This document shows positions 1,480-64,000 of a DNA stretch of 64,000 nucleotides, piece by piece. A program made the translations under genes and the position numbers. The DNA comes from a virus. The stretch is from positions 24,770 through 88,769 of IMG/VR virus record IMGVR_UViG_3300013093_003863. One strand, given 5' to 3'. Under the pieces are notes generated by a model that saw nothing but the letters and a program-made list of their open reading frames with translations, was not told where the DNA came from and did not search any database. The number at the start of each line of letters is the position of its first letter. Within the stretch, counting starts at the first letter, position 1.

Positions 1480-1707
1480 CTAAGGTAGGTGTCTGTTGAC
1501 CAAATCCAATACTTCTTGTAATGTGCTTACTGCGATATCATCATTGGGGATTGTGATTTTATATTCGTCTTCGAGTCTAAACACCAACTCCATTCGAGCT
1601 AGACTGTCTATACCCAAACTGTCCAAAGTGGTGGATAAAGTCCAATTGGTGGCATCAAGATCTTGGTCCTGGGCTATAAAATCAAACAATTGTTGTGGTG
1701 TTATCAT
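1480..1707 (-). CDS. Acyl carrier protein
   Basis: A 75-residue protein of the phosphopantetheine-binding fold. The D-S-L (IDSLARMEL) motif carries the serine that would receive 4'-phosphopantetheine, and helix III ends in a typical LQEVLDLV segment. The start chosen is M-I-T-P-Q-Q; longer in-frame extensions are basic and unlike ACPs. In a phage it could act as an acyl or peptidyl carrier for a tailoring enzyme or replace the host AcpP in lipid synthesis. No ketosynthase or thioesterase lies next to it. The 9-mer CCGTTGCGA occurs on both sides of the gene (1462 and 1722). Confidence 0.85.
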   Translation of the reverse strand: MITPQQLFDFIAQDQDLDATNWTLSTTLDSLGIDSLARMELVFRLEDEYKITIPNDDIAVSTLQEVLDLVNRHLP

Positions 1708-1831
1708 ATAAATACTTAGTGCCGTTGCGATACGGACCGATAAAGATTTGAAGAACCTGAGGATTTTCCGTGTCTCTCCTCTGGGCAACAACGAATTGGC
1801 AGACGAGCTTCATTAATTATCACGGCACGCT
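1708..1831. other. Non-coding gap upstream of ACP
   Basis: This 124-base stretch holds no convincing gene. The minus-strand copy of TCGCAACGG repeats part of the hairpin on the other side of the ACP gene. A TATAAATA string at 1707-1714 reads on the plus strand, away from ACP. Confidence 0.3.
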
Positions 1832-4800
1832 TTATGCACCACGCCACTGTGCATACAATCCAGTTACGTACATCATATCGTATTCACCATAATAGAGTTT
1901 GTTTAATTCGGTTTTTACTGCTGGAGTCAATGATCCGGTACCGGGCACCACGTCAAAAGCAAAAATCATATTGCCATCTTCGTCGTCTCCAAGATAGTCA
2001 CCGCCCAATCGTCCCATTACAATATCAATATTTTTATCAACTATCGCGTTTCTTCTTTTTGCCCTTGCAAGATCATCGGCATTTTTTTGTTTGTGTAACT
2101 TTTTATATTTAAGATCACTATTTTCCAATTCTACGTAGCCGCGAACTTCAACCCCGGGAATTTGTGCTAGACTCATCCAATTACGTTTACCGCCGGGTGT
2201 TTGTTGTGATCCAGCAAGCAAGGTTATTTTTAATATGCTTAGTGCAACACCATACAGGGCTTTGGCAATGCCCTGTCCTCGATAATCTTCATCCACTGTG
2301 ACGGTACTCACTTGGTATGCATTATTGATAGGAAAACCTACCCGCATCAATTTCAATTGTCCGACGGCTTCTTGCCCTGATTGATCTAATATTCTTATTT
2401 CTAAAAAACGCCCAGTGTCAATGGTGGCATAATTTAATCCACTGCCACCCGGTAACGGTTTTATATTCTTTTGGCTTACTGCCCTGGGATCGGTATACCT
2501 AGGATGTTTTAACACATCTTTACCACCTGTATATTGATATGATTGTAAATTTTCAATTTCGGTTATCTCGTCTTCGCTTATGGCACCGATACCTATACCA
2601 ATACCGGCACTAGCCAATGTATATTTTACAGTGTCGATCCAGTTTTTGCCGTTGACTCGACTCACCACAGTAGGTATAACAGTATTCAATACTGCCTGTA
2701 ACAACATGTTGGTCTGTGCTGGAGAAAGTTGTACATTTTGCGCTATATGCAACAAGCCACCAGTTAATAGTGTACCAATGGTTGTTATTACACCACCTTG
2801 TATATAAGGATTTGTTTTGGCTTTGACTAGAATTTCTTTAACTTGTCCACGAACTGAAGGATCGGCTTTGGCTAATAATGCTTGTGCTTGTTCAACGTAA
2901 TTGTCAACAGGTTGTCGAGCGACTTCGCCAACCTCATCTTGGTAAAAATCTATTACAGCATCAGTAACTTGATTAGCAACTTCGGATTCAAATAAACTTT
3001 CATCTACGGCACGTGCATACTCTGTAGCATGTCCACTGCGGTCTACATGCCAAGCATAAAATCTAATATCAGGATATTCTTGGTGTAACTTTAAAAATGA
3101 TTCCAAATTGGGCTTTGAATCATCGTACATAATTGCTTTGTTATAAGGATATCCTGTTAACAATCTACGTATAATACGTGCTTTCTTTTCATCAATTGGC
3201 ACAGGATCTTGATCATTTCCTGCACGGTACACATGTACCTTGTTCATATCTATGTGCCATTGTTCAAATGTTTTTAAGAATATTTCTTTATTGTTAAAGT
3301 CACTTCTAGCAGTAACCATTACAACTTTATTACCGGTTGCAATATCATTTTTCAATTGCTCAATCATGGGTGCAATTGGTTGTGCATGTTTGAAAAAGTC
3401 TTCGGCATCTCTAAATGCACCAAAGTCAAATTCTTCGCCGGGTTGCTTTTTGTACAATGTAAACTCGTGACTGTCTAGGGTCTTGACAGTTTTACCATTG
3501 CGAACTACACCAACTCGAGTATTAGTAGTTACTAGCGTATCGTCAATGTCAAATATAACTAATTTCTTTTCGCCAACAGCTTCGTCAACGCCTTCTTTGG
3601 CATGTTTCTTTTTGCCAGCTTTCATATTAGCCAACCAGTGTGCCATACGAGCTTTCTCTCCCGTACTATGTTTGGCCGTTTTACGTAGGCTACTTACACT
3701 TGCTTTAGTATTAACACCACTGCGTTTAGCCAATCCTTTGCGTCCAGGATGCTTACCATCGGCAAAGTTTTCGCTCATGATCCAAGTGTCGGGAATTTGT
3801 TTATACTTTTCTACCCAGAGATCATGCATTTTTTGTCCGCTTATACCATGACTCTTGGCTACACGTGTCATGATCTTGTCTATGATATCGTATACTTTGT
3901 CGTCATTGTCGTCGACTGCTTGTATCTGTTTTTTATGTGCTTCCAATGCGGCACGTAATTCTTCTACGGCATCTTTATCTTTGTCATGATCCATGTTTTC
4001 GTCTACTTTGTTTTGACTTTGAACATAGTCAATAGCGGATTGTACTATGACTTGATCTATCCCGAGACAGTTTTTGCGATCGCTATAGCCCTGTTTATCC
4101 ATTGCGTGGAGATAGGGATATATTCCTTGGATTTTTGGGAATAGTCCCATTTGCCAGGCCAGCTCAAAACTTATTTCTCCCCTTGGACTATACCATTCGG
4201 GATCATGACGCCATTTAATTCCAAAATTGGGTTTGACACCGTTGGGCCCTTTCACTGGTGGACCGTTATAAAATACTCCGGCACTGTTAAATTCAAGACG
4301 TGTATTATTGAAGGTCATCATGTATTCGCCATCACCTTTAGACCACATGCGATAATTCATTTTATTTAACAGTGCCACAACTGCGGGATCTTGTGAGGGA
4401 TCTTGTGCGGGTGCTTCTTTAAGAGGTGGAGCCGGTCTAAATTCAAACATGTCGGCTTCAACGTCCGAATACTTGCTGACAAGTTTTGCTATAACAGGAT
4501 CCATTGCCTTGTAGGGAATGTTGTGTGCTATTTGAATTGGTTTAGCGTTGGGTCGGCGTAGATTTAGATAAAGATTGATTCTGTCAGGATGTATGATTTT
4601 ACCTTCGTCGACATCATTTTCCCAGACATTTTGTTCGGGACGATGTTTAGCCCAAAAGCCGGCGCCAGCATCAGTTTGTTGCCCACTGCGGCGGATTTTA
4701 TAGCCTTTGCTTTTCACATAGTCATACATGGTTTGAGCAATGCCTTGCCCACGATAGCGTTCTTCAACTTCTAGGTCTTGTGGTAGTAATTCGTCACCAT

Positions 4801-14727: not shown

Positions 14728-15432
14728 TTAGGCCTGTACAACCTCGTGAATTTTTCCCACTATACCCGGACTCATTAAAGAGAGCATGGTCACAACGCCC
14801 AAATCATTGGTGTAGAAAAAAGCTCCCCACATGCCTGGATAGGGTCGTTTCAAATTGTGTCTTAACCCGGCAGTGAGTTTTACATCTTCTTGACTTTCTA
14901 ATAGATTAAGCATTTGTTCTTTTAGTAGCAAATCGTAAGTGCCATCTCTCAACAGTATCTTATATTTAAAAGGTATTTTTGGAGCAATGATTACATCTGA
15001 ACAGAGCAATTCTTCTGTGCCTGCCCGCGGACCAGTTATAGCCCGAATGCAACTATAAGTCGATAAGATTTTTGCTACTGATTTTAAATCATTTTCGTCT
15101 TTTGTATAAAATTGAACATTAGAATCTTCAATACGAGTTTTTGTAAGAGATACAAAATTTTCTTTCAGTGTCCTGATACTTTTTAATAAACCAAAATCGA
15201 CTTTATCGTACCTATCGGCTTGTGCTTTGTGTCGCCAACTGCCGCCCCAATTGCTTCGATTTTGAGCTTGAAGTTTCAATAGTTCTACGGCACGTTCGGT
15301 ATTATCATAACAAGCCACTTGAGCACAGTCGGCATGTATTTCCATACGCCAAAGATACTGACCCCAGAATCGTTTCTTGGTCTCTTTGAACTTGATACCG
15401 TAATTAAGACTGTTCCAGAATGATGTATCCAT
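14728..15432 (-). CDS. Unknown protein downstream of clpA
   Basis: A 234-residue protein of unknown function. The start MDTSFWNSLNYG overlaps the last 29 bases of the ClpA gene; a longer upstream frame lies wholly within ClpA. Visible features are a Trp-rich N-terminus (KKRFWGQYLWRMEIHA) and a mixed alpha/beta body with a C-terminal PYPGMWGAFFYTNDLG. Overlap with clpA suggests coupled translation. Confidence 0.55.
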   Translation of the reverse strand: MDTSFWNSLNYGIKFKETKKRFWGQYLWRMEIHADCAQVACYDNTERAVELLKLQAQNRSNWGGSWRHKAQADRYDKVDFGLLKSIRTLKENFVSLTKTRIEDSNVQFYTKDENDLKSVAKILSTYSCIRAITGPRAGTEELLCSDVIIAPKIPFKYKILLRDGTYDLLLKEQMLNLLESQEDVKLTAGLRHNLKRPYPGMWGAFFYTNDLGVVTMLSLMSPGIVGKIHEVVQA

Positions 15433-17683
15433 TTTCGTCCACAGTAGGTTGTTGAAGTTGCATTTTGGGCGAGAATATAAATTCACCAGCATAGTCAACT
15501 TCAATTACAGTATCACGTGCAACACTTTCAAACAAGATCTTTTTACTCAGTGGTACTTTGATCAAATCATTTATCTTGCGTGCCAAGGGCCTTGCACCCA
15601 TTTTGCTATCGTAGCCGACCGCGGCCAATCGATCAACTGCAGCCTCGGTCAACGTGATCTTGATTGCTTTTTCGCTCAACAACTCGTTGACTTCGTTGAT
15701 AAATTTAATAACAATTTTTTTGATACTAACTTGTGTAAGTCGATTGAACTTGCAAACACTGTCCAGTCTATTGCGGAATTCGGGTCTAAAGAATTCTTTG
15801 ACTGCTCGGTCGTCTTCGTCGGTCTTTTGCAGTTCGGTACTAAATCCAATGGTGTTACGCTCGTTGTCGCTGGCACCCAAGTTGCTGGTTAGAATAACAA
15901 TACAGTTACGTGCGTCGGCTTTCTTGCCGTTGCTGCTGGTAATTATTCCTTCGTCCATGAGTGCCAGCAACACATTCATTACATCGGGATGTGCTTTCTC
16001 AACTTCGTCAAACAGGATAACCGAGTTGGGATTCTTTTCAATATCGCTGATTAACATGCCACCTCCCAAGTTGCCGTCATCGTAGCCCACATACCCGGGA
16101 GGAGCACCGATCAATTTGGCCATGCTGTGTTTTTCTTGATACTCGCTCATGTCGTAACGCAACATTCGCATGCCCATACCTTCGGCAAGCAATTTGGCCA
16201 GTTCGGTTTTACCAGTGCCGGTTGGTCCCAAGAACAAAAAGTTGCCCACTGGCTTGTTGAGACTTTTTAAGCCGGCTCGTGCCACGTAGATCTTTTCCAA
16301 TACTGTGTCAACTACACTATCTTGTCCGTACAGTTTTGTCTTGATAGTGTCTTCCAGTCCCACCAGGCTCTTGGTACTTTCGCTACCAATTTGTTCGGCC
16401 GGTATCTTGATAAATTTACTGATAACATCCACTATGTTGCTTTTGGTAACAGTCCAATCCACGGCATGTATTTTCAATCGTGCTGCTGCTGTGTCGACGA
16501 GATCAATGGCTTTGTCAGGCAAACGTCGATCTGTTTGATAACGTACACTGAGATCAACAGCAGCTTCAATGGCATCGTCACCGATCTTGCCACCATGAAA
16601 TGCTTCAAAATATTCTCGTAGATTGTACAAGATTTCTTTTGCCACTGTGGGAGTGGGCTCTTCAACAACAATTCTACAGAACCTACGCATCAAGGCACGA
16701 TCCTTTTCAAAACTCTGTGTGTACTCTTCCCAGGTGGTACTGGCCAAGACCTTGATACTGCCCTTGGACAAGGCCGGTTTGATCATGTTGGCAAAGTCCA
16801 CACCTGATCCGCTACTGCCCGATCCGGCACCACGCATTTGATGTGCTTCGTCAATGAACAAAACACATTTGCCTTTTAGTTGCAGTGCCGCAATTACGTC
16901 TTTGAACTTTTCTTCAAACTCGCCGCGATATTTGCTTCCGGCAAGCAAATTGCCAATATCTAGATTGTAAACAGTGTAGTCTTTCAAGTAATCGGGGCAG
17001 TCACCATTCACAATGTTACGTGCCAGGCCTTCGGCAATGGCAGTTTTACCTACACCGGCATCGCCTACCAGTAACACGTTGCTTTTGTTACGCTTGGCCA
17101 AAACTTGTGCTATTTCATCTAGTTCAAAGTCTCTGCCCACCACCGGATCAATTTTGCCTTCTTTGGCCTGTACATTTAAATTTTCACAGTACTCTCTCAG
17201 TATCTCATCGGCTCGAACATTGTTTGTTCTACGTGCCGGTCTTGCTTCGGTATAGTTGTTACGATAAAATTCAATTAGTTCTAGTTTGTTGATGCCGTAT
17301 TTGTTGAAAAAGTAACTGGCATGACTATTGGCTTCGGCAGCAATACTCAAAAATATATCAATTACTTGAGCATGGCTACGACCCGAAAACATCACTTGTG
17401 TCAGTGCACGATTAAACACACGTTCTAGGCTTTGTGTTTTCTTTGGTGTTGTATTTTCTTCTGTGGTGATAATGTAGGTTTGTTTGTGCAAGTATTCTTC
17501 TAGATCAGTTGCCAATCCAGCAACATCGATCCCGAAGTTGGCCAACAATTCGTTGAACGGTTTAAACACTATTAAACCATGTGCAAGATGTTCGAGTGTT
17601 ACATATTCATGATTGTGTTGTTTGGCCAATTCGGTGGCATTTTGTATTACCACTTCAATTTCGGGATTTGTATGTAAGCTCAT
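15404..17683 (-). CDS. clpA: ClpA-like AAA+ unfoldase
   Basis: A 759-residue Hsp100 protein of full ClpA length: Clp-N domain (1-140), AAA1 with Walker A GDAGVGKT (207-214) and FIDEAH, AAA2 with Walker A GPTGTGKT (486-493), Walker B ILFDEVEKAH and a C-terminal D2-small domain (SKMGARPLARKI). I-G-F at 612-614 matches the ClpP-docking loop of ClpA/ClpX, so it could engage the host ClpP. No M-domain is present, so it is not ClpB. ClpA degrades ssrA-tagged proteins, and this phage also encodes a tmRNA. No Shine-Dalgarno; the ATG lies five bases after a late box. Confidence 0.92.
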   Translation of the reverse strand: MSLHTNPEIEVVIQNATELAKQHNHEYVTLEHLAHGLIVFKPFNELLANFGIDVAGLATDLEEYLHKQTYIITTEENTTPKKTQSLERVFNRALTQVMFSGRSHAQVIDIFLSIAAEANSHASYFFNKYGINKLELIEFYRNNYTEARPARRTNNVRADEILREYCENLNVQAKEGKIDPVVGRDFELDEIAQVLAKRNKSNVLLVGDAGVGKTAIAEGLARNIVNGDCPDYLKDYTVYNLDIGNLLAGSKYRGEFEEKFKDVIAALQLKGKCVLFIDEAHQMRGAGSGSSGSGVDFANMIKPALSKGSIKVLASTTWEEYTQSFEKDRALMRRFCRIVVEEPTPTVAKEILYNLREYFEAFHGGKIGDDAIEAAVDLSVRYQTDRRLPDKAIDLVDTAAARLKIHAVDWTVTKSNIVDVISKFIKIPAEQIGSESTKSLVGLEDTIKTKLYGQDSVVDTVLEKIYVARAGLKSLNKPVGNFLFLGPTGTGKTELAKLLAEGMGMRMLRYDMSEYQEKHSMAKLIGAPPGYVGYDDGNLGGGMLISDIEKNPNSVILFDEVEKAHPDVMNVLLALMDEGIITSSNGKKADARNCIVILTSNLGASDNERNTIGFSTELQKTDEDDRAVKEFFRPEFRNRLDSVCKFNRLTQVSIKKIVIKFINEVNELLSEKAIKITLTEAAVDRLAAVGYDSKMGARPLARKINDLIKVPLSKKILFESVARDTVIEVDYAGEFIFSPKMQLQQPTVDENGYIILEQS

Positions 17684-17688
17684 AAAAA

Positions 17689-17694
17689 TATTTA
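17689..17694 (-). promoter_or_regulatory. Late promoter box for clpA
   Basis: Minus-strand CTAAATA in which TAA (17692-17694) is the stop of the DnaJ-like gene. Five T residues separate it from the clpA ATG; if the start site follows the T4 rule (box ending at -6), transcription begins on the A of the ATG. Confidence 0.5.
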
Positions 17695-18534
17695 GTTAGA
17701 GTTGAGTATGTTTTGGATAGTGTCAAGTTGTTGTTGATCGAGATTTTTAGGAACAGTCACAGTCATCTCGGCATATAAATCTCCTCGATGTTCTGAATGC
17801 ATTTGATATATTCCCTGTTGTGCCAATCTGAATTTAACGTTGGGTTGTGTACCCGGTGGAATAGCAATGGTAAATTTTTTATTGTCAAGACCAACAACTT
17901 CGGCAACACCGCCTACTATTGCAGTTAAACAGTTTACACTAAACCGGGTGTGTAAGTCAATGCCATTTGATACATGAAAATTGTCGTTGGCATGAACTGT
18001 TATCTGCACAAACAAATCGCCACGCGGCAAAGTATTAAACATATTATCGCCAAGTCCGGGATATTTTATTTGAGTTCCGCTTGTTACTCCACGTGGAACC
18101 ATGACTTCTACTGCTTCTCTTGTGCCAGTGGTGGTTTGTATGCTAATTGTCTTGGCTTGCTCGTGCAAGGTTTCTGCTAGACTAATTGGCAATTCGATCC
18201 GTAAATCTTTATTGCGTCTCTGTTGTTGTGGACGTAAATGTGCAAAAGGATCGTTTCCAAATCCAAAGTTTTTGAATATTTCTTGTATGTCGGGATGCCC
18301 GCCATTGTGCCAAGTAAAGTGTACTCCGCCGGAGCCGGGATTGCGACGCTCGTGGTCATAGCGTTGACGTCGGTCACTATCGGACAAAGTATCATACGCA
18401 GTTTGAATCTCTTGAAATTTTTGAGTATCTCCGCCTTTATCGGGATGATGCTGGCTGGCCAATTTTCGGTAAGCTCGTTTGATTTCATCGGTTCCGGCAG
18501 ATTCTTCAACACCTAGTGTTTCATAATGAGTCAT
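17692..18534 (-). CDS. DnaJ/CbpA-type co-chaperone
   Basis: A 280-residue class II J-protein: J-domain with HPD at residues 30-32, a Gly/Phe-poor linker with WHNGG, and two C-terminal substrate-binding domains (RIELPISLAETL; GTQPNVKFRLAQQGI). It lacks the Cys-rich zinc domain of DnaJ. It would stimulate the host DnaK. The gene stands directly before clpA, and the genome also encodes a GroES-like protein, so the phage carries several proteostasis factors. Confidence 0.9.
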   Translation of the reverse strand: MTHYETLGVEESAGTDEIKRAYRKLASQHHPDKGGDTQKFQEIQTAYDTLSDSDRRQRYDHERRNPGSGGVHFTWHNGGHPDIQEIFKNFGFGNDPFAHLRPQQQRRNKDLRIELPISLAETLHEQAKTISIQTTTGTREAVEVMVPRGVTSGTQIKYPGLGDNMFNTLPRGDLFVQITVHANDNFHVSNGIDLHTRFSVNCLTAIVGGVAEVVGLDNKKFTIAIPPGTQPNVKFRLAQQGIYQMHSEHRGDLYAEMTVTVPKNLDQQQLDTIQNILNSN

Positions 18535-23220: not shown

Positions 23221-24405
23221 CTAGAACTTGTAATGGTTGTTGATTCCGGTGTCGTGATAGTCGGCAGATCCTAGACAGTAAAACGGGCTTAAAAATCCCA
23301 CAAATCCCACGGGTCGTCCCAGCTCGTTATTGAAATACTTGGGATCTATGGTTTTGACCAAGAGATTTTGTCCGGCCTCTTGAATACGAAAAGCAGCGGT
23401 ATTTTGAAAGTTGTGATAAAACCAATAGTCCATTTCGTTGTAAAAACTGTTGGTGGGTTTACTGGTTTGAAACGTAGCCGGATCGTAGTCGGGATAGATC
23501 AAGGGTTTGACCACTTGTTCATAGGCACTGCGATGTGCAATGCTGTAATTGGGCCAACGCACTAGATACTGTAGATGTTTGTTGGCCGGCAAGCTGAACC
23601 AGGTGCGTATTATGTGTGCTTGTTTTTGCACTATTTCGGGAAAATCTGGAGTCCAATAAAAATATTCGTTCGTGATATTGTTGTAATCGTAAACAGTATT
23701 ACTATGATTGGCCTGCAAATCCATAAAATACACATACCATTTGCCGTCCTTGATGCACATCTTGGGCTTGTCAATTCCGTACAACACACAGATTTTTTTG
23801 CCGGTATCGGCAAATTCACGATGTTCTTTCATGGCCACAGCATCGTGCTTGCACACATGAGCCAATTGAAAATAGTCTTTGCCTCGAAAAACCCAAGTTT
23901 CATCAGTGGCACTGTCCAAGATAAATTCACTGTAGTCGTGTATGGTAATTCGCACTCGAGGAAAATGTGTTTGGACCCAATTCAGTAACGGTCTAGCAGC
24001 AAAATCGTATTCGCTAAGAGTATTTTGGGGTTTGGTATTGAACGGATCACTGCTGACTCCTTTTTCGCCCTGTTTGGGATAGCGAAAAACTATTTCATCT
24101 ATGTGTATGCCGTTGCGTAAAAAACTGTAAATAGCAGTAGTACTGTCGCCACCGCCGGACGCTTCAACTCGAATCCAATCATAACGTTCGCGTAATTGTT
24201 GTGCACGTTGTCTATACAATTCACGCAAGTCTGTTTCGGGTTCTTGTTCCCATGCCATGGCATCAAATATTGGTCTATTAAAATTCCATTCGGGAAAACG
24301 ATTGGTCTTGGTGGCAGTAATCAGTGCCTGCACTTTGTTGTATATTTTTTCATCACCAAGTTGGTAGTACCCCAACTTGGTATTTTGTTCAATGCCTTTA
24401 ATCAA
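23221..24405 (-). CDS. PP-loop ATP pyrophosphatase-like enzyme, copy 1
   Basis: A 394-residue protein with the N-type PP-loop motif S-G-G-G-D-S-T-T near residue 85, which binds the ATP phosphates in asparagine synthetase, PAPS-reductase-like and tRNA-thiolation enzymes. A later GIDKPKMCIKDGKWYVYFMD block is shared in pattern with the protein at 62575-63687. It probably adenylates a substrate for amidation, thiolation or transamidation. The TTG start overlaps the stop of the Bug receptor gene (TTGATTAA). The substrate is unknown. Confidence 0.7.
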   Translation of the reverse strand: MIKGIEQNTKLGYYQLGDEKIYNKVQALITATKTNRFPEWNFNRPIFDAMAWEQEPETDLRELYRQRAQQLRERYDWIRVEASGGGDSTTAIYSFLRNGIHIDEIVFRYPKQGEKGVSSDPFNTKPQNTLSEYDFAARPLLNWVQTHFPRVRITIHDYSEFILDSATDETWVFRGKDYFQLAHVCKHDAVAMKEHREFADTGKKICVLYGIDKPKMCIKDGKWYVYFMDLQANHSNTVYDYNNITNEYFYWTPDFPEIVQKQAHIIRTWFSLPANKHLQYLVRWPNYSIAHRSAYEQVVKPLIYPDYDPATFQTSKPTNSFYNEMDYWFYHNFQNTAAFRIQEAGQNLLVKTIDPKYFNNELGRPVGFVGFLSPFYCLGSADYHDTGINNHYKF

Positions 24406-25291
24406 TTTTTACACCAGTGCTCAATTTCTTCCACTGGGCCTGTTGCGATTCGTACCAGGCATGCAAGTCTTGATCTTTCATTTCGCTCATGCTGTAACAA
24501 TGATCGATCAAGTAGGATTTTTGCACCGATTCGGCTCGAGCAGCCTGTACCAGTATCTTACGCCATTCGCGAAATTTTTCATCCGGCACCGATTTTGGTA
24601 CAACCAAATGATGCGGGGCATCCATGTTGGACACTATTTTTGCAAATCCCTCGCCGGCCAAGATCGGATGATGATTGACCGATTTGGGGCCAGTGGTTCC
24701 CAGTATGTGTACCTTGTCGCCCCAGGACTCGCTTTCGCCTAGAAATCCCACGTGCAAGTCAATGTTGCCCGACATCATGGACAAAATGCTGTCGTTTGTA
24801 CTCTTGAACGGCACAACTTGAACATTGGGAAATTTAGACACAATCTGCAACGAAGTCAAATGGGTAGTCACTCCCAATCCGCTTGTGCCAATATTGAGTG
24901 GTTTGTCCTTGGGAACATCGGCCCAGGTTTGATACTTGGTGCTACTGATTGCTATTGGTGCATTACATTGTGGCATTAGTTCTTGAAAATCGTTGACATT
25001 GTAACTTTCATTGGGATAAAAATTGGGTCGGATAAAAAATGCACTGCTGGTGGCCAAAATAGTATTACTGTTATTTTTCACAAAATTAGCAGCAATGGCA
25101 TTGCCAGCACCGGGTTTGGTATCAAACACAAAGGTGTATTTGTCCTGTATATGGTTGGCTTCCTCGACCAAGGTCCTACTGTATGCAGCCATGGTGTCTG
25201 CGGGACTAAAAGCATAATAAATTGTCACAGTTTCTTTAGCCATGCTCGTGATTGCAAATGCAGAAAGAACAACGGCGAGTAATTTTTTCAT
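24398..25291 (-). CDS. Bug/TctC-family solute-binding protein, copy 1
   Basis: A 297-residue periplasmic receptor of the tripartite-tricarboxylate (Bug/TctC) family with signal peptide MKKLLAVVLSAFAITSMA. The mature part has the KPGAGNAIAANFV motif and downstream GTSGLGVTTHL typical of Bug proteins that bind small carboxylates. No TctA/TctB membrane genes accompany it, so it may use host transport partners, sequester a ligand, or signal. It is coupled to a PP-loop gene. The ribosome site is AAAGGAATTTCTATG. Confidence 0.9.
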   Translation of the reverse strand: MKKLLAVVLSAFAITSMAKETVTIYYAFSPADTMAAYSRTLVEEANHIQDKYTFVFDTKPGAGNAIAANFVKNNSNTILATSSAFFIRPNFYPNESYNVNDFQELMPQCNAPIAISSTKYQTWADVPKDKPLNIGTSGLGVTTHLTSLQIVSKFPNVQVVPFKSTNDSILSMMSGNIDLHVGFLGESESWGDKVHILGTTGPKSVNHHPILAGEGFAKIVSNMDAPHHLVVPKSVPDEKFREWRKILVQAARAESVQKSYLIDHCYSMSEMKDQDLHAWYESQQAQWKKLSTGVKID

Positions 25292-26816: not shown

Positions 26817-27445
26817 TTTATTACCTTTACTGTTACGTCATTCTCAATATAATTTTGCTTGTATTCCGCGGGAGGAGTTGCTATCGCCAACGCTCTGCAC
26901 AATTGATGATTGTTTGTTGGCATTGCAAGATTTTGGTCATACTCGGTCCAGGACTCTACTAGATTTGTATTCTGTTGATGTATACGTCGAGCCATTGTTT
27001 TTAAATCCACATAATACTTATGGTATAGCGGATACGTGATATCAAAATGTCCGCATTTGACCCACCAACCCAAACAAGCATCATCACTGCGGTGAACTAA
27101 TACAACGGGACACTCGGGCCAAGTTTTACGTAAAAAATCTATGTGGTTGCAAAAGATGTGACTTTTAATAATACGTATACCATTGTTGTCTCGTGCAAAG
27201 GGTGCATCAAATATGGCTTCTAAACTGGCCCGGCCATGAAAGTCCACCGACTCGGGCAAGTCCGATTCCATTCCGGGATCAAAGTACGCACCCAAGTGCA
27301 TCAAGTCCATGGTACCGCTAGCATCGTGATAATAAGTCCATTCCGCACGATAGTCACTGCGATCTATATCGGGACTGTAATAAATGTTTTTAACAACACT
27401 GCTCCATTTTGAGCCCGGAGCACCGGCTACAAAAATGTACTTCAT
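26813..27445 (-). CDS. Sulfotransferase-like P-loop protein
   Basis: A 210-residue protein with an N-terminal VAGAPGSKWSSVVKNI P-loop variant and a central VHRSDD segment like the PAPS-binding arm of sulfotransferases. Sequence is divergent from the neighbour at 25495, so the two may act on different acceptors. Start and stop overlap adjoining genes. Confidence 0.6.
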   Translation of the reverse strand: MKYIFVAGAPGSKWSSVVKNIYYSPDIDRSDYRAEWTYYHDASGTMDLMHLGAYFDPGMESDLPESVDFHGRASLEAIFDAPFARDNNGIRIIKSHIFCNHIDFLRKTWPECPVVLVHRSDDACLGWWVKCGHFDITYPLYHKYYVDLKTMARRIHQQNTNLVESWTEYDQNLAMPTNNHQLCRALAIATPPAEYKQNYIENDVTVKVIK

Positions 27446-28425
27446 TAGTCTTTACTGATATCAATCTTTTCCAACATGGGTAAAAATGTATCACGTAGAC
27501 TTTGTGCATGTCGAACCAATCCTGCAGGAGTCAATTCTGCATCATCGGTAAACACCACATTGTCATAACACCATTGTTGATACTGTTTACTGTGTACGGC
27601 GGCACTAAATGTCTTGACATACCAGTCAACGACTTCTTGTGGTGTGTTGGGTGGCAATGCAATACTCCAAGCGGCATATACATTTACTCCGGGGGCAACA
27701 CCGTTCAACAAAGGTACATTGGGATACTGTGCCATCTTGTGTGTTCCACTAAATCCAATTGCTTTGACTTTGCCGGCTTCGATCAAGGGTTTGGCCACTG
27801 CAATGGGCATGATACCAAACTCTGTGCCCAAGTTACCATCAAACTGTGCCACACTAGTAACTGCTTGCAATGGTCCATTAAATTTAACTGTTTTAACTAA
27901 CTCGGTATTACCGTGTCCTTTAACCATTAAGTATTCAAACACTGTGCGATGTGCCCCTCCGCCCACCGCTACACTAATGGGGCGGTTGGTTGTGCTGATC
28001 AACTTTACAAATTCTTCAGGAGTATTAATTGTACTTCGAACACTGGCCACTAGCACTTGTGGACTCTTGCCCATGGTCAACACATGAGTAAATTCATTCC
28101 ATTGCCATTTCTTTACAGACTTTTCCCAAATATCGTTTGTGACAAATGTGCTCATATGGCTTAACGCATTTATAGTATATCCATCTGGAGTGGCTTTGTA
28201 CAATTCGTTCATTGACACCACACTGTCGGCTCCGGGCTTGTTTACCACATACCACTTGACCGTGGGTTGTGTTTGATTCACAATGGCCATTAGTTCTCTA
28301 AATGCCAGTTCATTACCAGCACCAGGATTGTTGCCTACAATTACTTCAATGGGCTTGTTGGGACTGGGTTCCCATGCAAATGCTAATGCAGGCAGTAGTA
28401 ATAATATTGTTAAAATTCGTTTCAT
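27445..28425 (-). CDS. Bug/TctC-family solute-binding protein, copy 2
   Basis: A 326-residue receptor with signal peptide MKRILTILLLLPALAFA and the Bug core: VIVGNNPGAGNELAFRELM, then PISVAVGGGAHRTVF. This copy is not next to a PP-loop gene but lies between a sulfotransferase-like gene and an amidotransferase. The ligand is probably a carboxylate; no membrane transporter subunits are encoded nearby. Ribosome site TAGGACTTTAACATG. Confidence 0.88.
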   Translation of the reverse strand: MKRILTILLLLPALAFAWEPSPNKPIEVIVGNNPGAGNELAFRELMAIVNQTQPTVKWYVVNKPGADSVVSMNELYKATPDGYTINALSHMSTFVTNDIWEKSVKKWQWNEFTHVLTMGKSPQVLVASVRSTINTPEEFVKLISTTNRPISVAVGGGAHRTVFEYLMVKGHGNTELVKTVKFNGPLQAVTSVAQFDGNLGTEFGIMPIAVAKPLIEAGKVKAIGFSGTHKMAQYPNVPLLNGVAPGVNVYAAWSIALPPNTPQEVVDWYVKTFSAAVHSKQYQQWCYDNVVFTDDAELTPAGLVRHAQSLRDTFLPMLEKIDISKD

Positions 28426-46453: not shown

Positions 46454-47029
46454 CTAATCCCACATTCCTCTATAATATTTGGCAAACAATCTTAGTCCAT
46501 TTGCAATGCGATCTTCGACTTCCTGATAACCTTCTCGGTCAAATCCCTTGTCGGTGTGAAACTTATCCTCCCAATCGTTGTCAGGATGCAAGTGTTCAAA
46601 GGTCCAAATCATTTCACTTAGTATCCAGGACCAACGTTCATGTACTGTACTGTCTGTGTATCCGTTCTTGGGGTTGGCTTCTTCTGAAGGCCACAACTCT
46701 TCGGGACAATCTTCGGGATCGGTTAATGGACTGCCGTGTTTGTCCATTTGAAGTTGTTTCAACATGGGCAAAATAATTATGGCCAGGGTTGCGTCCATGC
46801 TCCAAGTATCATAATGGTCAATTTTGACATATTTGATCTTAGGATGCACACAATCCAAAATCCATTTTATGCCTCGGCTAATAAATTCAATTCGATCTGT
46901 CCAACGCTCAACCCATTCGGGGTATGGGGGACCGTCTTCTCGTGCCCAGTCACACCAAAAGAATATCCGTTCCATAATCGTGTAAGGTGAAATCCAATGA
47001 TTACGATAGTTAGAAATGTAGATACGCAT
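46454..47029 (-). CDS. Conserved phage hypothetical
   Basis: A 191-residue protein with a central YDTWSMDATLAIIILPMLKQL block followed by DTEDCPEELWPSEEA-like acidic sequence and HERWSWILSEMIWTFE. This pattern occurs in T4-like phage hypotheticals. It abuts the homing-endonuclease gene. Function unknown. Confidence 0.55.
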   Translation of the reverse strand: MRIYISNYRNHWISPYTIMERIFFWCDWAREDGPPYPEWVERWTDRIEFISRGIKWILDCVHPKIKYVKIDHYDTWSMDATLAIIILPMLKQLQMDKHGSPLTDPEDCPEELWPSEEANPKNGYTDSTVHERWSWILSEMIWTFEHLHPDNDWEDKFHTDKGFDREGYQEVEDRIANGLRLFAKYYRGMWD

Positions 47030-47826
47030 TATGGTTTACTCTTACAATTATTAAAATGCCATTGATTCATTTGTGGTGCTCCGCCTTCTTTACCGCAATG
47101 CGGGCATTGTAGTTTGGGCTTTGGTTTTCCGGTCATTGACTTACTTCTTTTTTCATTTGCTTCCGTGGTAGTTGCATTCAGGCTCCAAGTTATTTTTCTG
47201 CCTTTTAACGCATCTCTTTTTTTCTGTTTTGTTTCTTCCGAATCCTTCTTTCCCAATCTAGCCAATCTATTCTTAACTCGTTGCTCTTCAGTCCTTACCT
47301 TACCTCTATTTGCATCTGCAATTTTTTGAATATGCTCTTTAGTTTTTGGTTTTCTTAGTTTTTCTTTATGCTCTTCTGACAGAAGTTTGCCTTTATTGGC
47401 ATGACTGATTTTTCTTTTTGTTGATTCTGAAACAATTCTACCAGTACGTTGTTCTTTCCATAATTTTCGAGTACTATCGGAAACTTTATGTCCTTTTAGT
47501 GAGTTACTAATTTTTGACTTTGTTTCGTCATCACGCGGTCCTCTGATTATATTGGCCTTTGCTAACCCTTCTCGTATATTTTTTCTGGCCTCATCAGTAT
47601 GTTTCCTACCAGTCCAAGTCCTACGAGTCGCTTCTCTCCTTGCTTCATCTGTAGTTATTTGTCCGGATAATGCCTTCCATGCAACTAAATCTTGCCATCT
47701 ACCGTCTTCTTCGTACAATTTACGATGTGCTTCAGCATGTTCTTCAACGGTTAACTCAATTAAATTTTCTGGATCATCAGTGCCACCTGCATGTTTTGGT
47801 ATAATATGATGCTTGTGCTTTCCCAT
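47029..47826 (-). CDS. HNH homing endonuclease with NUMOD3-type repeats
   Basis: A 265-residue protein: N-terminal HNH domain (HKHHIIPKHAGGTDDPENL), several basic NUMOD3-like DNA-binding repeats (HTDEARKNIREGL; STKRKISHANKGK; EEHKEKLRKPK), and a C-terminal zinc-finger-like CPHCGKEGGAPQMNQWHFNNC. It is free-standing; the flanking genes look intact, so no intron is evident here. Regulation is unusually readable: an early promoter, a hairpin over the ribosome site, and a late promoter overlapping one arm. Confidence 0.9.
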   Translation of the reverse strand: MGKHKHHIIPKHAGGTDDPENLIELTVEEHAEAHRKLYEEDGRWQDLVAWKALSGQITTDEARREATRRTWTGRKHTDEARKNIREGLAKANIIRGPRDDETKSKISNSLKGHKVSDSTRKLWKEQRTGRIVSESTKRKISHANKGKLLSEEHKEKLRKPKTKEHIQKIADANRGKVRTEEQRVKNRLARLGKKDSEETKQKKRDALKGRKITWSLNATTTEANEKRSKSMTGKPKPKLQCPHCGKEGGAPQMNQWHFNNCKSKP

Positions 47827-51733: not shown

Positions 51734-51757
51734 TTTACTACACAACAGGAGCATTTG

Positions 51758-52804
51758 ATGACCGAACGCAGGAAAATTCGTTGGTTAATTGCACATTTCC
51801 CGCAATACTTATTTGTAAGAACTGCCAAAGCCTTCAAGCATGAGTTAGAAAAATTGTGCCCGGGAGAATTTGAAATAGAAATTCTTACTATGTCTGAATA
51901 TGCCGACCAGTACAACAAGCATCCCGAGTTCAAATCATCGCCGCCGGTGATTGCCGGTTTAGATGGTAAAGTCAATACCAATGATCATGTCAAGACGAAC
52001 ACCAGCTGGGCTCAAAATGCAAAAAAATGGGCAGCACTATTCCAAGCTCTCGGCGACGACGAATTTCAATTGAGTCAAACCCAAATCAGCATAATTGGAA
52101 ACGAGCTGGACAAAAATTTCCACGCCATAGATTTACCATTCTTGTTTGATGATCACGACCACGTGACGCGAGTACTAGATGGCGACATAGGCAATAAATT
52201 ATGTACCGAGATCGGGCAAAAAACACCAATTACAGCATTGGCATTTACATATTCTGGCGGTTATCGAGTAATTGGCTCGAATACAAAAATTACCAATTTG
52301 TCAGATTTGGCCAACACCAACTTATTGACTCAAACTGCACACAGCGTGAAACTGTTTGAAGAAATTGGAGCTAAACCGGTTCGCAGATTGGCACTGAGTG
52401 GAGATCAATTGGCCGATGTTGCCAACGATCCAGCAGCATCAGTAGAAACCACATACTTACGCTTTAGCGGTAAACATGTTTACAAAACCGAACACAGTAT
52501 GTTTACTACAAGTATTTTGACCGGTAACAAGTTTTGGAATTCATTAACCAACAAACAACAGGACGCTTTCCGTATTGCTGCAAAGAAAACAGCCAAACAC
52601 GAACGCAAATGGAGCATTGATGATGCAAAAAAATACGAAGATCTTGCACAAGAAAATGGTGTTGAAATCATTGGTATTAGCGAACAAGATCGAGCAGTTT
52701 TGCAACAGGCCGCTCTTTTAACCTACCAAGAACTTGAATCATTGGGCATTGATCCAATATTGGTACAGTCTATTATAGCACAACGAAACAGTCACATACA
52801 GTAA
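51758..52804 (+). CDS. DctP-like TRAP-type solute receptor without signal peptide
   Basis: A 348-residue protein with the TRAP dicarboxylate-receptor pattern: periplasmic-binding-like domains, DLPFLFDDHDHVTRVLDG, ALAFTYSGGYRVIGSNTKI and a conserved helix near the C-terminus. Known DctP proteins are exported, but this one begins MTERRKIRWLIAHFP with no hydrophobic signal segment. It may act in the cytoplasm, ride in the virion, or be delivered by another route. No DctQM genes are seen. Ribosome site CAGGAGCATTTGATG. Confidence 0.8.
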   Translation: MTERRKIRWLIAHFPQYLFVRTAKAFKHELEKLCPGEFEIEILTMSEYADQYNKHPEFKSSPPVIAGLDGKVNTNDHVKTNTSWAQNAKKWAALFQALGDDEFQLSQTQISIIGNELDKNFHAIDLPFLFDDHDHVTRVLDGDIGNKLCTEIGQKTPITALAFTYSGGYRVIGSNTKITNLSDLANTNLLTQTAHSVKLFEEIGAKPVRRLALSGDQLADVANDPAASVETTYLRFSGKHVYKTEHSMFTTSILTGNKFWNSLTNKQQDAFRIAAKKTAKHERKWSIDDAKKYEDLAQENGVEIIGISEQDRAVLQQAALLTYQELESLGIDPILVQSIIAQRNSHIQ

Positions 52805-61695: not shown

Positions 61696-62574
61696 TTACT
61701 CGACCAAGCGTCTAAAATGCTGAGTCTGTTCCTCAATGTACTGATTGGGGTTACGCACCGGCTTCATGGGAATGTATCCGGTCTGCATCAAATTTTCTAC
61801 TTCGGGCAAGTAGTTGACAAAATTTGTCAGCACATCTACAACCACGGGATTGTGCAATAAATTACTGTCATTGGGAACTGCAAACGCCAGCCATTGGTGC
61901 AATTGAAATCCCGGCAGTGTGGTCGATATCAAGGGCAAGTCAACACCTCGAACTCGATCACTCACGGCCAGTATTCGTACCAAGCCGGCCTTGTGATTGG
62001 GATATTCGGTGCTGAATCCGTCGAACCCACAGGCAACTTCTTTACTGGCTACAGCCATGGTCAACTGTGCTCCGCCTTTGTAGGGCACTGGCTCAAAATG
62101 TGTGCCGAATCGGTTGTTCAAGTAACGTATGGCCAAAAATGCATGAGCACCTCCGGCAGCACATAACACTGTATCTTTTTTGGCAGCTGCGATCAATTCA
62201 GACAAACTTTGATAACCAGTGGGATTGGACACAAACACAGTGGGAGTATCAATTATGGGCGAAAAGAATGTCATGGTTTGAGCATGTAGATTTTCTCTGT
62301 TCTTGACCACGTGGTTGTAAACAAAATCACTAGTGGCTCCGTTTAATATGGTATTGTTGTGATTCAATTGCATGTGTGCATAGGCCACATCGCCTTGACC
62401 ACCTGTCTTGTAGTTTATGATATTTTTTACACCACGATTGGATAACATGATACTGAGCATGTGGCTGGTTATGTCGCTAGCACCACCGGGCGATACCGGC
62501 ACCACAATTTCAATAACTTCCTCGGCATACACCAAGTTGGCGACAAAGATCAATAGCAACAACAGTTTTTTCAT
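61696..62574 (-). CDS. Bug/TctC-family solute-binding protein, copy 3
   Basis: A 292-residue Bug receptor with signal peptide MKKLLLLLIFVANLVYA, EIVVPVSPGGASDITSHML and VLCAAGGAHAFLAIRY. It directly follows a PP-loop gene (GGACCCTAAATG), the same gene pair as at 23221-25291 but in reverse order. No TctA/TctB subunits are visible. Confidence 0.9.
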   Translation of the reverse strand: MKKLLLLLIFVANLVYAEEVIEIVVPVSPGGASDITSHMLSIMLSNRGVKNIINYKTGGQGDVAYAHMQLNHNNTILNGATSDFVYNHVVKNRENLHAQTMTFFSPIIDTPTVFVSNPTGYQSLSELIAAAKKDTVLCAAGGAHAFLAIRYLNNRFGTHFEPVPYKGGAQLTMAVASKEVACGFDGFSTEYPNHKAGLVRILAVSDRVRGVDLPLISTTLPGFQLHQWLAFAVPNDSNLLHNPVVVDVLTNFVNYLPEVENLMQTGYIPMKPVRNPNQYIEEQTQHFRRLVE

Positions 62575-63687
62575 TTAGGGTCCTAGGTTATAAGATTTAG
62601 CGTGAAGGGTTCGACTTAAAAATATATGATTGGGTTTTTCAAATGCTGTTTGATTCAAGTATTCGTAAAAGCCGCGTTCGCTGGCCAAATTGTGCCAGCC
62701 GCGTACATAATTGGTGACTATGGGATTTTGACTTTTCAAGGCGTCGATCACACTCTTTTCGCTGCGTACTGCATCAAAATCAAACACACTCTTGGATACA
62801 TCTAACTGGGTCTCGGTCACATGCGAGCCATTTATTTTCTGTGCAAAACTAACACCCTGAGATAGTTCGGGGTGTCGTCCCACTGCTCTAGCCCAGGCAG
62901 TATATCCCGGACTGCTTCGGGTATAAAATCGTGTACGTACTTCGAGATTTTTATCTTGGCGTTGCAACTGTTTCAGCATGTTCTTGGCCATGTGACTCTG
63001 TTTGCAATTGATCACTGGATCAAGGAAAAAGCACTCTTGATGTTGTTGTCCCATGGCTATTTTTAATCCGTTGTGATCGCTCTGCTTGGTCCACCAGGTG
63101 CCGTCCCGGAATCCCACTATGGGTTTTTCTAGCCCCACAATGGCTGCCCAAGTATAAGCCCCGTGATGTTGTTCGCAGATTCTAGTGGAATACTCGCAAA
63201 TTTGTCCGTGTATGGGGAAACGTGCACTACCTCCGCGATTTTGAAAAAGCCATTCGTCATTTTGAATTTCGGGTTCTCTAACTTCGGGATCGTCTTCACT
63301 GTAACTGGTAATAATAGTGGTGGGATCCCAGTGATTGGTTTTCATCCAGGTCACATGGCTGTAGGGTTGCCCGGGCACTTTGTCTCCGTACTTGATAATT
63401 ATTTCATCCAAGTGAATACGATTTTGTGCAAAGATATTGTATATGGTATGACTGTCAGTTCCACCGCTCCAGTGTAGCACCAGTCGTTGATATTTGTTAC
63501 GCAGATTGTGGGCATGCTGGGTCATCAGCTGATCTAGAGTTTGCGGCGGCTCGCGACTCCAATCGCCTAATGCATCATTTTCTTGATCATAGCAGTGAAA
63601 GGTAACGGGTAGCCCGGTCTTGTACGATTCAAATTGGGCCAGGTACCAATTGAAAATTTGTTTGTTGTTTACTTGATAATAGATCAT
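62575..63687 (-). CDS. PP-loop ATP pyrophosphatase-like enzyme, copy 2
   Basis: A 370-residue protein starting MIYYQVNNKQIFNWYLAQFE with a PP-loop S-G-G-T-D-S-H-T near residue 75 and a VGLEKPIVGFRDGTWWTK segment that parallels copy 1. It likely adenylates a carboxyl or carbonyl group. The start is placed at 63687 because a promoter reads straight into this ATG; a longer frame would lie upstream of the promoter. Confidence 0.7.
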   Translation of the reverse strand: MIYYQVNNKQIFNWYLAQFESYKTGLPVTFHCYDQENDALGDWSREPPQTLDQLMTQHAHNLRNKYQRLVLHWSGGTDSHTIYNIFAQNRIHLDEIIIKYGDKVPGQPYSHVTWMKTNHWDPTTIITSYSEDDPEVREPEIQNDEWLFQNRGGSARFPIHGQICEYSTRICEQHHGAYTWAAIVGLEKPIVGFRDGTWWTKQSDHNGLKIAMGQQHQECFFLDPVINCKQSHMAKNMLKQLQRQDKNLEVRTRFYTRSSPGYTAWARAVGRHPELSQGVSFAQKINGSHVTETQLDVSKSVFDFDAVRSEKSVIDALKSQNPIVTNYVRGWHNLASERGFYEYLNQTAFEKPNHIFLSRTLHAKSYNLGP

Positions 63688-63693
63688 GTCGCT

Positions 63694-63722
63694 AGTATAC
63701 ACGAATGAGGAGATTTTGTCAA
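63694..63722 (-). promoter_or_regulatory. Early promoter giving a leaderless PP-loop mRNA
   Basis: Minus-strand TTGACA (63717-63722) and TATACT (63694-63699) at 17 bp; six bases (AGCGAC) separate the -10 box from the ATG. Confidence 0.75.
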
Positions 63723-63728
63723 GGAAGA

Positions 63729-63746
63729 AGCCCACCAAAGTGGGCT
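63729..63746 (-). terminator. Terminator downstream of tmRNA
   Basis: AGCCCAC (63729-63735) and GTGGGCT (63740-63746) with a 4-base loop, followed on the minus strand by TTCTTCCTT. It separates the tmRNA from the PP-loop promoter. Confidence 0.7.
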
Positions 63747-63755
63747 GGTTGTTTC

Positions 63756-63928
63756 TGTTACGAGGTATTTCCTACCCTAGGCCGAGTTTAGGCAGCCAAT
63801 GCGAACAGTTCGTCGTTTGCGTTTACGTTTTTTGCTTCTTCGACCGGGTCACCCCAATCCTAACGGCTTCTACATTGCCGAGCGCCACTATTCTTACTCT
63901 TTGCCCAATCGATCACCATGTCAGGCCC
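63756..63928 (-). ncRNA. ssrA: tmRNA coding piece (circularly permuted ssrA)
   Basis: Reading the minus strand from 63928, GGGCCTGACATGGTGATCGATTGGG aligns with the E. coli tmRNA 5' end (GGGGCUGA...GAUUCGACGGG), giving the 5' acceptor strand and D-loop. The tag frame GCA-AAC-GAC-GAA-CTG-TTC-GCA-TTG-GCT-GCC-TAA (63788-63820) encodes A-N-D-E-L-F-A-L-A-A-stop, the bacterial tag type with LAA terminus. GGGCCU pairs with AGGUCC of the acceptor piece, with G3-U70 wobble, the alanine identity element. The left end is approximate. Confidence 0.85.
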
Positions 63929-63990
63929 ATCATAAAAACACAATACCAAAGTAAATTTACAGTGAATACCAAAGTAAATTTATGCTCTTA
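63929..63990 (-). other. tmRNA intervening segment with direct repeat
   Basis: Between the CCA end of the acceptor piece and the coding piece are 62 bases carrying AATACCAAAGTAAATTTA twice (63942-63959 and 63965-63982). In two-piece tmRNAs this segment is removed by processing. Confidence 0.6.
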
Positions 63991-64000
63991 TGGTGGACCT
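63991..64000 (-). ncRNA. ssrA: tmRNA acceptor piece, 3' end only (cut by window)
   Basis: On the minus strand AGGTCC-A-CCA: six acceptor-stem bases, discriminator A and a DNA-encoded CCA. The remainder lies beyond the window. Confidence 0.7.

What the first reader, a model, noticed from the sequence alone, without database searches (positions are those of the whole stretch)
63756..64000. Phage-encoded, circularly permuted (two-piece) tmRNA
The minus strand first shows AGGTCC-A-CCA at 64000-63991, the 3' end of an acceptor piece. A 62-base spacer follows, then a coding piece beginning GGGCCTGACATGG...GATTGGG, like the tmRNA 5' end and D-loop, and carrying a tag frame A-N-D-E-L-F-A-L-A-A-stop (63788-63820). 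The acceptor strands pair perfectly across the spacer with a G3-U70 wobble, the alanine identity element. Two-piece tmRNAs are known from alpha-, some betaproteobacteria and cyanobacteria; I do not recall one described in a phage, but could not check.
Basis: partly seen in the sequence, partly recalled or inferred. Interest (0 to 1): 0.95.

Follow-up and report, generated by a model that had tools for sequence, protein, structure and literature searches.

The report
Phage two-piece tmRNA at contig end
The end of this phage contig carries part of a real split ribosome-rescue RNA (a permuted tmRNA), a kind already known in phages; what looks new is that related phages shuffle its parts and, in some, hide a whole protein gene in the spacer between its two pieces.

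Summary
Window 63788-64000(-) matches Rfam tmRNA_permuted at 58.7 bits (cut-off 47), truncated because the 88,769-bp viral contig ends at base 64000. A relative with the same gene downstream (L027, 354-kb contig) has the whole gene, including T-arm, seventh acceptor pair and a P2 strand that pairs 7/7 with the window's changed P2. Two-piece tmRNAs in phages were already published in 2022 (PMC9004378).

Three points go beyond that. (1) The tag ANDE[hydrophobic]FALAA occurs in at least 119 viral contigs but in one of 84,980 species' genomes, on a contig that looks viral. (2) The gene is a mosaic: left of the tag it matches L027, right of it other phages; across about 200 viral tmRNAs both D/P2 types occur with both common 3' modules. 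(3) In related viruses the spacer can be a complete protein gene: in loci not selected for it, 12 of 12 spacers of 170 nt or more are ORFs; ribosome-binding site right after CCA, dN/dS 0.10-0.57, nuclease and DUF2061 families recognised. The window's own 62-nt spacer has no such gene.

The parts
63991..64000 (-). 3' end of the acceptor (tRNA-like) piece: AGGTCC-A-CCA (positions 67-76), cut by the contig end
   Evidence: RF04321 truncated hit; complete T-arm and C66 in relative L027
63929..63990 (-). intervening segment (ITS/IVS, 62 nt) predicted to be removed; its ends pair (UAAGAG / UUUUUA)
   Evidence: identical to the L027 ITS; end-pairing general in viral ITSs
63942..63982 (-). 18-nt unit TAAATTTACTTTGGTATT in two copies, period 23 (63982-63965 and 63959-63942); single copy in L014/L042/L048
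63747..63928 (-). coding (mRNA-like) piece, G1 at 63928; 3' end near 63747 inferred from conservation and the terminator
63902..63908 (-). P2 5' strand UUGGGCA; pairs 7/7 with UGUUCAA of L027
63864..63880 (-). stem CGGC/GCCG (CGGG/CCCG in L027: a both-sided compensatory change)
   Evidence: alignment
63788..63820 (-). tag reading frame ANDELFALAA*, resume codon GCA
   Evidence: same tag called by ARAGORN in many viral relatives
63729..63746 (-). intrinsic-terminator-like hairpin AGCCCAC-TTTG-GTGGGCT just after the coding piece
63694..63722 (-). sigma70-like promoter TTGACA-17-TATACT (11/12) of the next gene

Best explanation
The feature is the cut-off end of a phage-encoded, circularly permuted tmRNA (ssrA) gene. 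Transcription runs acceptor piece - 62-nt spacer - coding piece - terminator. Host tRNA-processing enzymes should cut at G1 and at the encoded CCA, giving two RNAs held together by the 7-bp acceptor stem and helix P2. Alanyl-tRNA synthetase charges it through G3-U70. Host SmpB and EF-Tu bring it to stalled ribosomes, which resume at GCA and add A-ANDELFALAA, a tag ending in the LAA that Clp proteases read. The phage probably uses it to keep ribosomes cycling and to recycle truncated proteins when mRNAs are being destroyed during takeover. The gene is a mosaic: its tRNA-like half and spacer belong to one phage lineage and its part 3' of the tag to another, with the junction at the strongly conserved tag sequence. 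Shown: gene structure, covariation, mosaicism, viral context. Inferred: transcription, processing, charging, tagging, benefit to the phage.
For: RF04321 hit. Relative L027 (94% identity over the coding piece before the tag, identical ITS, same downstream gene) supplies T-arm, C66 and P2 3' strand; co-folding gives the acceptor stem, T-arm and P2. P2 covaries over 59 distinct viral strand pairs: 6.41/7 paired versus 4.65 +/- 0.13 shuffled. Viral context: clamp loader, DNA ligase, PhoH, endolysin, virion protein by PHROGs. Mosaic: informative sites switch at the tag against six different partners, Fisher 9.5e-6 to 3.7e-11; both D/P2 types occur with both common 3' modules. No SmpB in G000 or in 17 large related viral contigs, so the host's must serve (contigs may be incomplete).
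Against: The window has only 10 nt of the acceptor piece; its own T-arm, C66 and P2 3' strand are unseen. In the genome search the hit is 36.8 bits, below cut-off. L027 barely passes RF01850 (85.6 against 84) and has an unusual 6-nt T-loop. No expression data. The Fisher sites are not independent, and it is unknown whether the window or L027 is the recombinant.
Confidence: 0.9

Rival explanations
1. A decaying or inhibitory tmRNA: present but not able to complete trans-translation, as with the tag-less tmRNA of mycobacteriophage DS6A, which inhibits the cell's own tmRNA.
For: The tRNA-like part is divergent (6-nt T-loop in L027); an inhibitory phage tmRNA is reported for DS6A (PMC11915505).
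Against: Tag frame, resume region, LAA end and all visible stems are intact; both-sided compensatory changes in P2 and in the CGGC/GCCG stem indicate selection on structure. DS6A-type forms lack the tag frame; this one has it.
Confidence: 0.08
2. Host DNA: a bacterial ssrA fragment carried on a misassembled or contaminated contig.
For: The match sits exactly at the contig end; several viral contigs end or start inside this gene.
Against: L027 has the gene inside a 354-kb contig with the same downstream gene; the tag-coding 27-mer pattern is in 50 viral contigs and in 0 of 84,980 species' genomes; the amino-acid pattern is in >=119 viral contigs and 1 genome.
Confidence: 0.02

Closest known systems
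Two-piece (permuted) tmRNA of phages, e.g. Methylophilales phage Melnitz (PMC9004378)
   Same: Phage-encoded permuted ssrA with encoded CCA and tag frame; aquatic phages.
   Different: Melnitz is alpha-type with tag ANDNYVPVDYALAA and a glutamine riboswitch at its 3' side; the window has a beta-like tag piece, an alpha-like D/P2 region, tag ANDELFALAA and a plain terminator. blastn finds no relative of the window gene among 50,697 phage records.
Betaproteobacterial permuted tmRNA (Rfam RF01850)
   Same: Tag piece and 3' region align; L027 85.6 bits, other viral relatives up to 148.6.
   Different: D region GAUCGAUUGGG with compensating P2 strand in place of UUCGACAGGG/CUGGAC; hydrophobic residue in the middle of the tag.
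Alphaproteobacterial permuted tmRNA (Rfam RF01849)
   Same: The AUCGA D region; relatives L014/L048 also have the alpha-type T-loop GGCRGUN (88.2 bits).
   Different: The alpha Rfam consensus tag region differs (longer, ANDN-type); the window's own match is weak (21.3 bits).
tmRNA genes with inserts: group I intron form, and one permuted gene with a tRNA-Ala in its intervening sequence (PMC11915505)
   Same: Extra genetic material sits in a part removed during maturation.
   Different: In relatives found here the insert is a protein gene filling the spacer of a permuted tmRNA; the passages of that paper found by search do not mention this.

Membership tests
permuted tmRNA (RF04321) | Covariance-model score above gathering cut-off | tested here: met
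   58.7 against 47 in truncated mode; complete L027 94.9
permuted tmRNA (RF04321) | Order acceptor piece - spacer - coding piece on one strand, CCA encoded | tested here: met
permuted tmRNA (RF04321) | 7-bp acceptor stem with G3-U70 | tested here: met
   6 of 7 pairs visible in the window, the seventh in L027
permuted tmRNA (RF04321) | T-arm | tested here: inconclusive
   off the contig; in L027 GAGGC-UUCGAA-GCCUC with a 6-nt loop
permuted tmRNA (RF04321) | P2 helix joining the two pieces | tested here: met
   window UUGGGCA against L027 UGUUCAA, 7/7; covariation over 59 viral pairs
permuted tmRNA (RF04321) | Tag frame with Ala resume codon and terminal AA-stop | tested here: met
   ANDELFALAA*
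permuted tmRNA (RF04321) | Cleavage into two RNAs, alanylation, tagging | not testable with these tools
   needs RNA and protein work
betaproteobacterial tmRNA (RF01850) | Score above 84 bits | tested here: inconclusive
   window too short; L027 85.6
alphaproteobacterial tmRNA (RF01849) | Score above 50 bits | tested here: not met
   window 21.3 bits; partial because of truncation
phage-encoded gene | Viral genes on the same contig and in relatives | tested here: met
   PHROG hits; L027 synteny

The most novel reading that the evidence does not exclude
In a subset of phages related through this tmRNA, the spacer of the permuted gene is a cargo slot. A protein gene fits between CCA and G1 with its ribosome-binding site (UAAGGA) abutting CCA and its stop codon usually one base before G1. 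Excising the spacer to make tmRNA would release a minimal mRNA of RBS, ORF and stop. The RBS is complementary to the gene's own last codons in a helix that continues the acceptor stem, so tmRNA processing and translation of the nested gene may be mutually regulated, and a nibbled spacer could become a nonstop message for the same tmRNA. The nested genes are shown by sequence; the coupling is inference. The probability given is for the nested genes being real, expressed genes; the coupling alone I would put near 0.3.
Probability: 0.85. Interest if true: 0.75.

Novelty: new variant of a known kind. Interest (0 to 1): 0.55.

Why it matters
Two-piece tmRNA in phages is known but little studied. 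The window's group adds a tag nearly absent from sequenced cellular species and clear modular recombination between tRNA-like and mRNA-like halves, so the pieces are exchangeable parts. The nested protein genes in relatives would be a new gene arrangement: a functional RNA gene that holds an mRNA in the part it throws away. That makes it testable whether tmRNA maturation controls a phage protein, and shows a way in which insertions can be tolerated inside a conserved RNA gene.

Tried and rejected
(a) Circular contig split at the tmRNA: the far contig end has no tmRNA-like T-arm. (b) Neighbour-protein search in IMG/VR found no confirmed relative, although L027 later proved to have the same downstream gene. 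(c) blastn of the window tmRNA or L048 against phage records: no match. (d) 'A hydrophobic tag residue is the rule in viral tmRNAs' rejected: an unrestricted tag pattern also gave many K, Q and R; only its near absence from cells stands. (e) Variant T-loop GGCAGUG as a viral novelty rejected: it matches the Rfam alpha consensus. (f) Nested ORFs as chance: 26 of 30 spacers of 170-1000 nt carry one against 0.9 expected; loci L239 onward were chosen by an RBS+ATG pattern, so the unbiased figure is 12 of 12. (g) A Burkholderiales centre for the genome search could not be obtained, so bacterial tag frequencies beyond the exact-pattern scans are untested. (h) The 2,886-nt 'ITS' of L004 is a mis-paired acceptor and was dropped from the unbiased count.

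Full report
What is there. The minus strand at the right end of the window reads AGGTCC-A-CCA, a 62-nt spacer, and a coding piece GGGCCTGACATGGTGATCGATTGGG... with the frame ANDELFALAA* at 63820-63788. Rfam RF04321 (tmRNA_permuted) matches at 58.7 bits, E = 8.1e-9, in 5'-truncated mode. ARAGORN is silent because the gene is cut. The window is bases 24770-88769 of an 88,769-bp virus record, so nothing lies to the right, and the other contig end does not continue the gene. The contig is viral: clamp loader, ATP-dependent DNA ligase, PhoH, endolysin, virion structural protein. No SmpB was found in it or in 17 large related viral contigs, which may be incomplete.

A complete relative. L027 (IMGVR_UViG_3300022602_000024, 354,429 bp) has the gene whole: identical spacer, 94% identity over the coding piece before the tag, and the same downstream gene. 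It shows the T-arm (GAGGC-UUCGAA-GCCUC, a 6-nt loop), C66 as partner of G7, and the P2 3' strand UGUUCAA, which pairs 7/7 with UUGGGCA shared by L027 and the window. In most viral relatives this helix is built on CUGGAC and CGACAGGG, so both strands have changed together. Over 59 distinct viral P2 strand pairs, 6.41 of 7 positions pair, against 4.65 +/- 0.13 when partners are shuffled. A stem in the coding piece also differs from L027 by a both-sided change (CGGC/GCCG against CGGG/CCCG). A hairpin terminator follows the coding piece, then a strong sigma70-like promoter for the next gene.

Already known. Two-piece tmRNAs in phages were described in 2022 (PMC9004378): of 133 unique tmRNA structures in 402 phages, 53 were two-piece, 50 of those from marine or aquatic samples. 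The 2025 tmRNA database lists 79 bacteriophage sequences (PMC11915505). The gene itself is a new member of that kind.

Tag. The DNA pattern of this tag is in 50 IMG/VR contigs and in no genome of 84,980 bacterial and archaeal species. Without the residue restriction, viral tags also have K, Q, R, T, A, S there, so hydrophobic is one viral variant, not a rule. In E. coli terms (from memory) this residue lies between the SspB and ClpX contacts; LAA is kept.

Mosaic. The window matches L027 up to the tag and other phages (L190, L034, L177, L200, L025, L161) after it; informative sites switch there with Fisher p from 9.5e-6 to 3.7e-11, sites not being independent. Across about 200 viral permuted tmRNAs, the two D/P2 types (UCGAUU with CAAGA; UCGAC with CUGGAC) each occur with the two commonest 3' modules. 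The AUCGA D region is alpha-like, and the alpha T-loop GGCRGUN is found in close relatives such as L014, while the tag piece is beta-like. So tRNA-like and mRNA-like parts have been exchanged among phages, with the conserved tag sequence as a likely seam. Whether the window or L027 is the recombinant is not known.

Nested genes in relatives. The window's spacer is short and has no ORF; it carries a 23-nt tandem duplication of the spacer seen in L014/L042/L048. In other viral permuted tmRNAs the spacer is longer. Among 172 unique genes from loci not chosen for it, 12 have spacers of 170 nt or more, and all 12 are filled by one ORF. With loci fetched by an RBS+ATG pattern added, 26 of 30 spacers of 170-1000 nt are filled, against 0.9 expected by chance. 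Starts lie mostly 8-13 nt after CCA, every one of 29 with a spacer of 150 nt or more has a ribosome-binding-site-like motif there (6 of 98 short spacers without an ORF do), and in 24 of 36 cases the stop ends one base before G1. The first bases after CCA pair with the last bases of the spacer: 5.89 of 6 against 4.31 with letters shuffled; the pairing is general in viral spacers. The flanking tmRNA is called by Rfam across the insert in L192, L084, L197, L346, L350, L277, L290, L330 and L312. Nested proteins include a staphylococcal-nuclease-like protein (PF00565, 2.6e-12; 57% identical to a free-standing Melnitz nuclease), DUF2061 (3.5e-20), CxxCxxCC, PGDYG, and an HNH-like protein just under cut-off. 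A 62-aa family nested in L330, L277, L350 and L252 is a free-standing gene directly upstream of the tmRNA in cultured phage Melnitz. dN/dS between homologues is 0.10-0.57. Independent contigs show the same arrangement (L197/L346, L236/L328, L240/L299), which argues against assembly artefacts. I found no report of this in the papers searched; the passages of the 2025 database paper found by search mention only a tRNA and a repeat inside such spacers, and its supplements could not be read.

How it most likely works. For the window: host processing, alanylation by G3-U70, host SmpB, ribosome rescue and tagging for proteolysis, in service of a phage that is dismantling host mRNA. These steps are inferred from family knowledge; structure, covariation and mosaicism are shown. 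For nested genes: the spacer, once cut out, is a minimal message, and the helix that hides its RBS also holds the processing sites, so the two outputs could be coupled; this is a hypothesis.

Verdict. Real, correctly read, and a member of a known class; interesting for its mosaic make-up, its nearly virus-only tag and, above all, for the nested-gene variant in its relatives.

Noticed in passing
L084:3144-3780(-), L197:3150-3572(-), L346:6913-7335, L192:9677-10141, L312:5886-6538, L330, L277, L350, L252, L200, L017, L087, L155 and others: Protein genes filling the intervening segment of viral permuted tmRNA genes, with the RBS directly after CCA and the stop just before G1; under purifying selection.
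   Followed up: yes
L351:1786-1927 (Melnitz MZ577097.1): The 142-nt spacer of the cultured phage Melnitz tmRNA has an unannotated ORF of 54 aa (1805-1969, RBS-like GGAGAAG) that runs about 40 nt into the coding piece.
   Followed up: partly
window 24398-25291, 27445-28425, 61696-62574 (-) and 51755-52804 (+): Three TctC-type and one DctP-type extracellular solute-binding proteins on one phage contig; an unusual set of auxiliary genes.
   Followed up: partly
window 62575-63687 and 23221-24405 (-); L027:2760-3875(-): Two proteins with a PP-loop-like motif (SGGTDS, SGGGDS) and no Pfam or PHROG match; one lies directly downstream of the tmRNA in both the window and L027.
   Followed up: partly
window 47029-47826 (-), L027:4227-4775 (+), L312 spacer: HNH-type proteins with a similar start (KHHIIPKH.GG.DDPENLVEL): in the window with NUMOD3, in L027 next to the tmRNA on the other strand, in L312 inside the tmRNA spacer; hints at homing-type insertion near this gene.
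   Followed up: partly
L060:2072-2362 and 2951-3156 (-): Two permuted-tmRNA matches in one 4.6-kb viral contig, the second partial with an odd tag by ARAGORN.
   Followed up: no
L003, L026, L032, L112 and the window: Several viral contigs start or end inside this tmRNA, some within 10 nt of the tag; the shared conserved sequence probably breaks assembly graphs.
   Followed up: no
window 1480-1791, 15404-17683, 17692-18534 (-): From translation only: acyl-carrier-like protein (DSLGIDSLARMEL), ClpA/B-like ATPase and DnaJ-like protein; a chaperone set on a phage.
   Followed up: no
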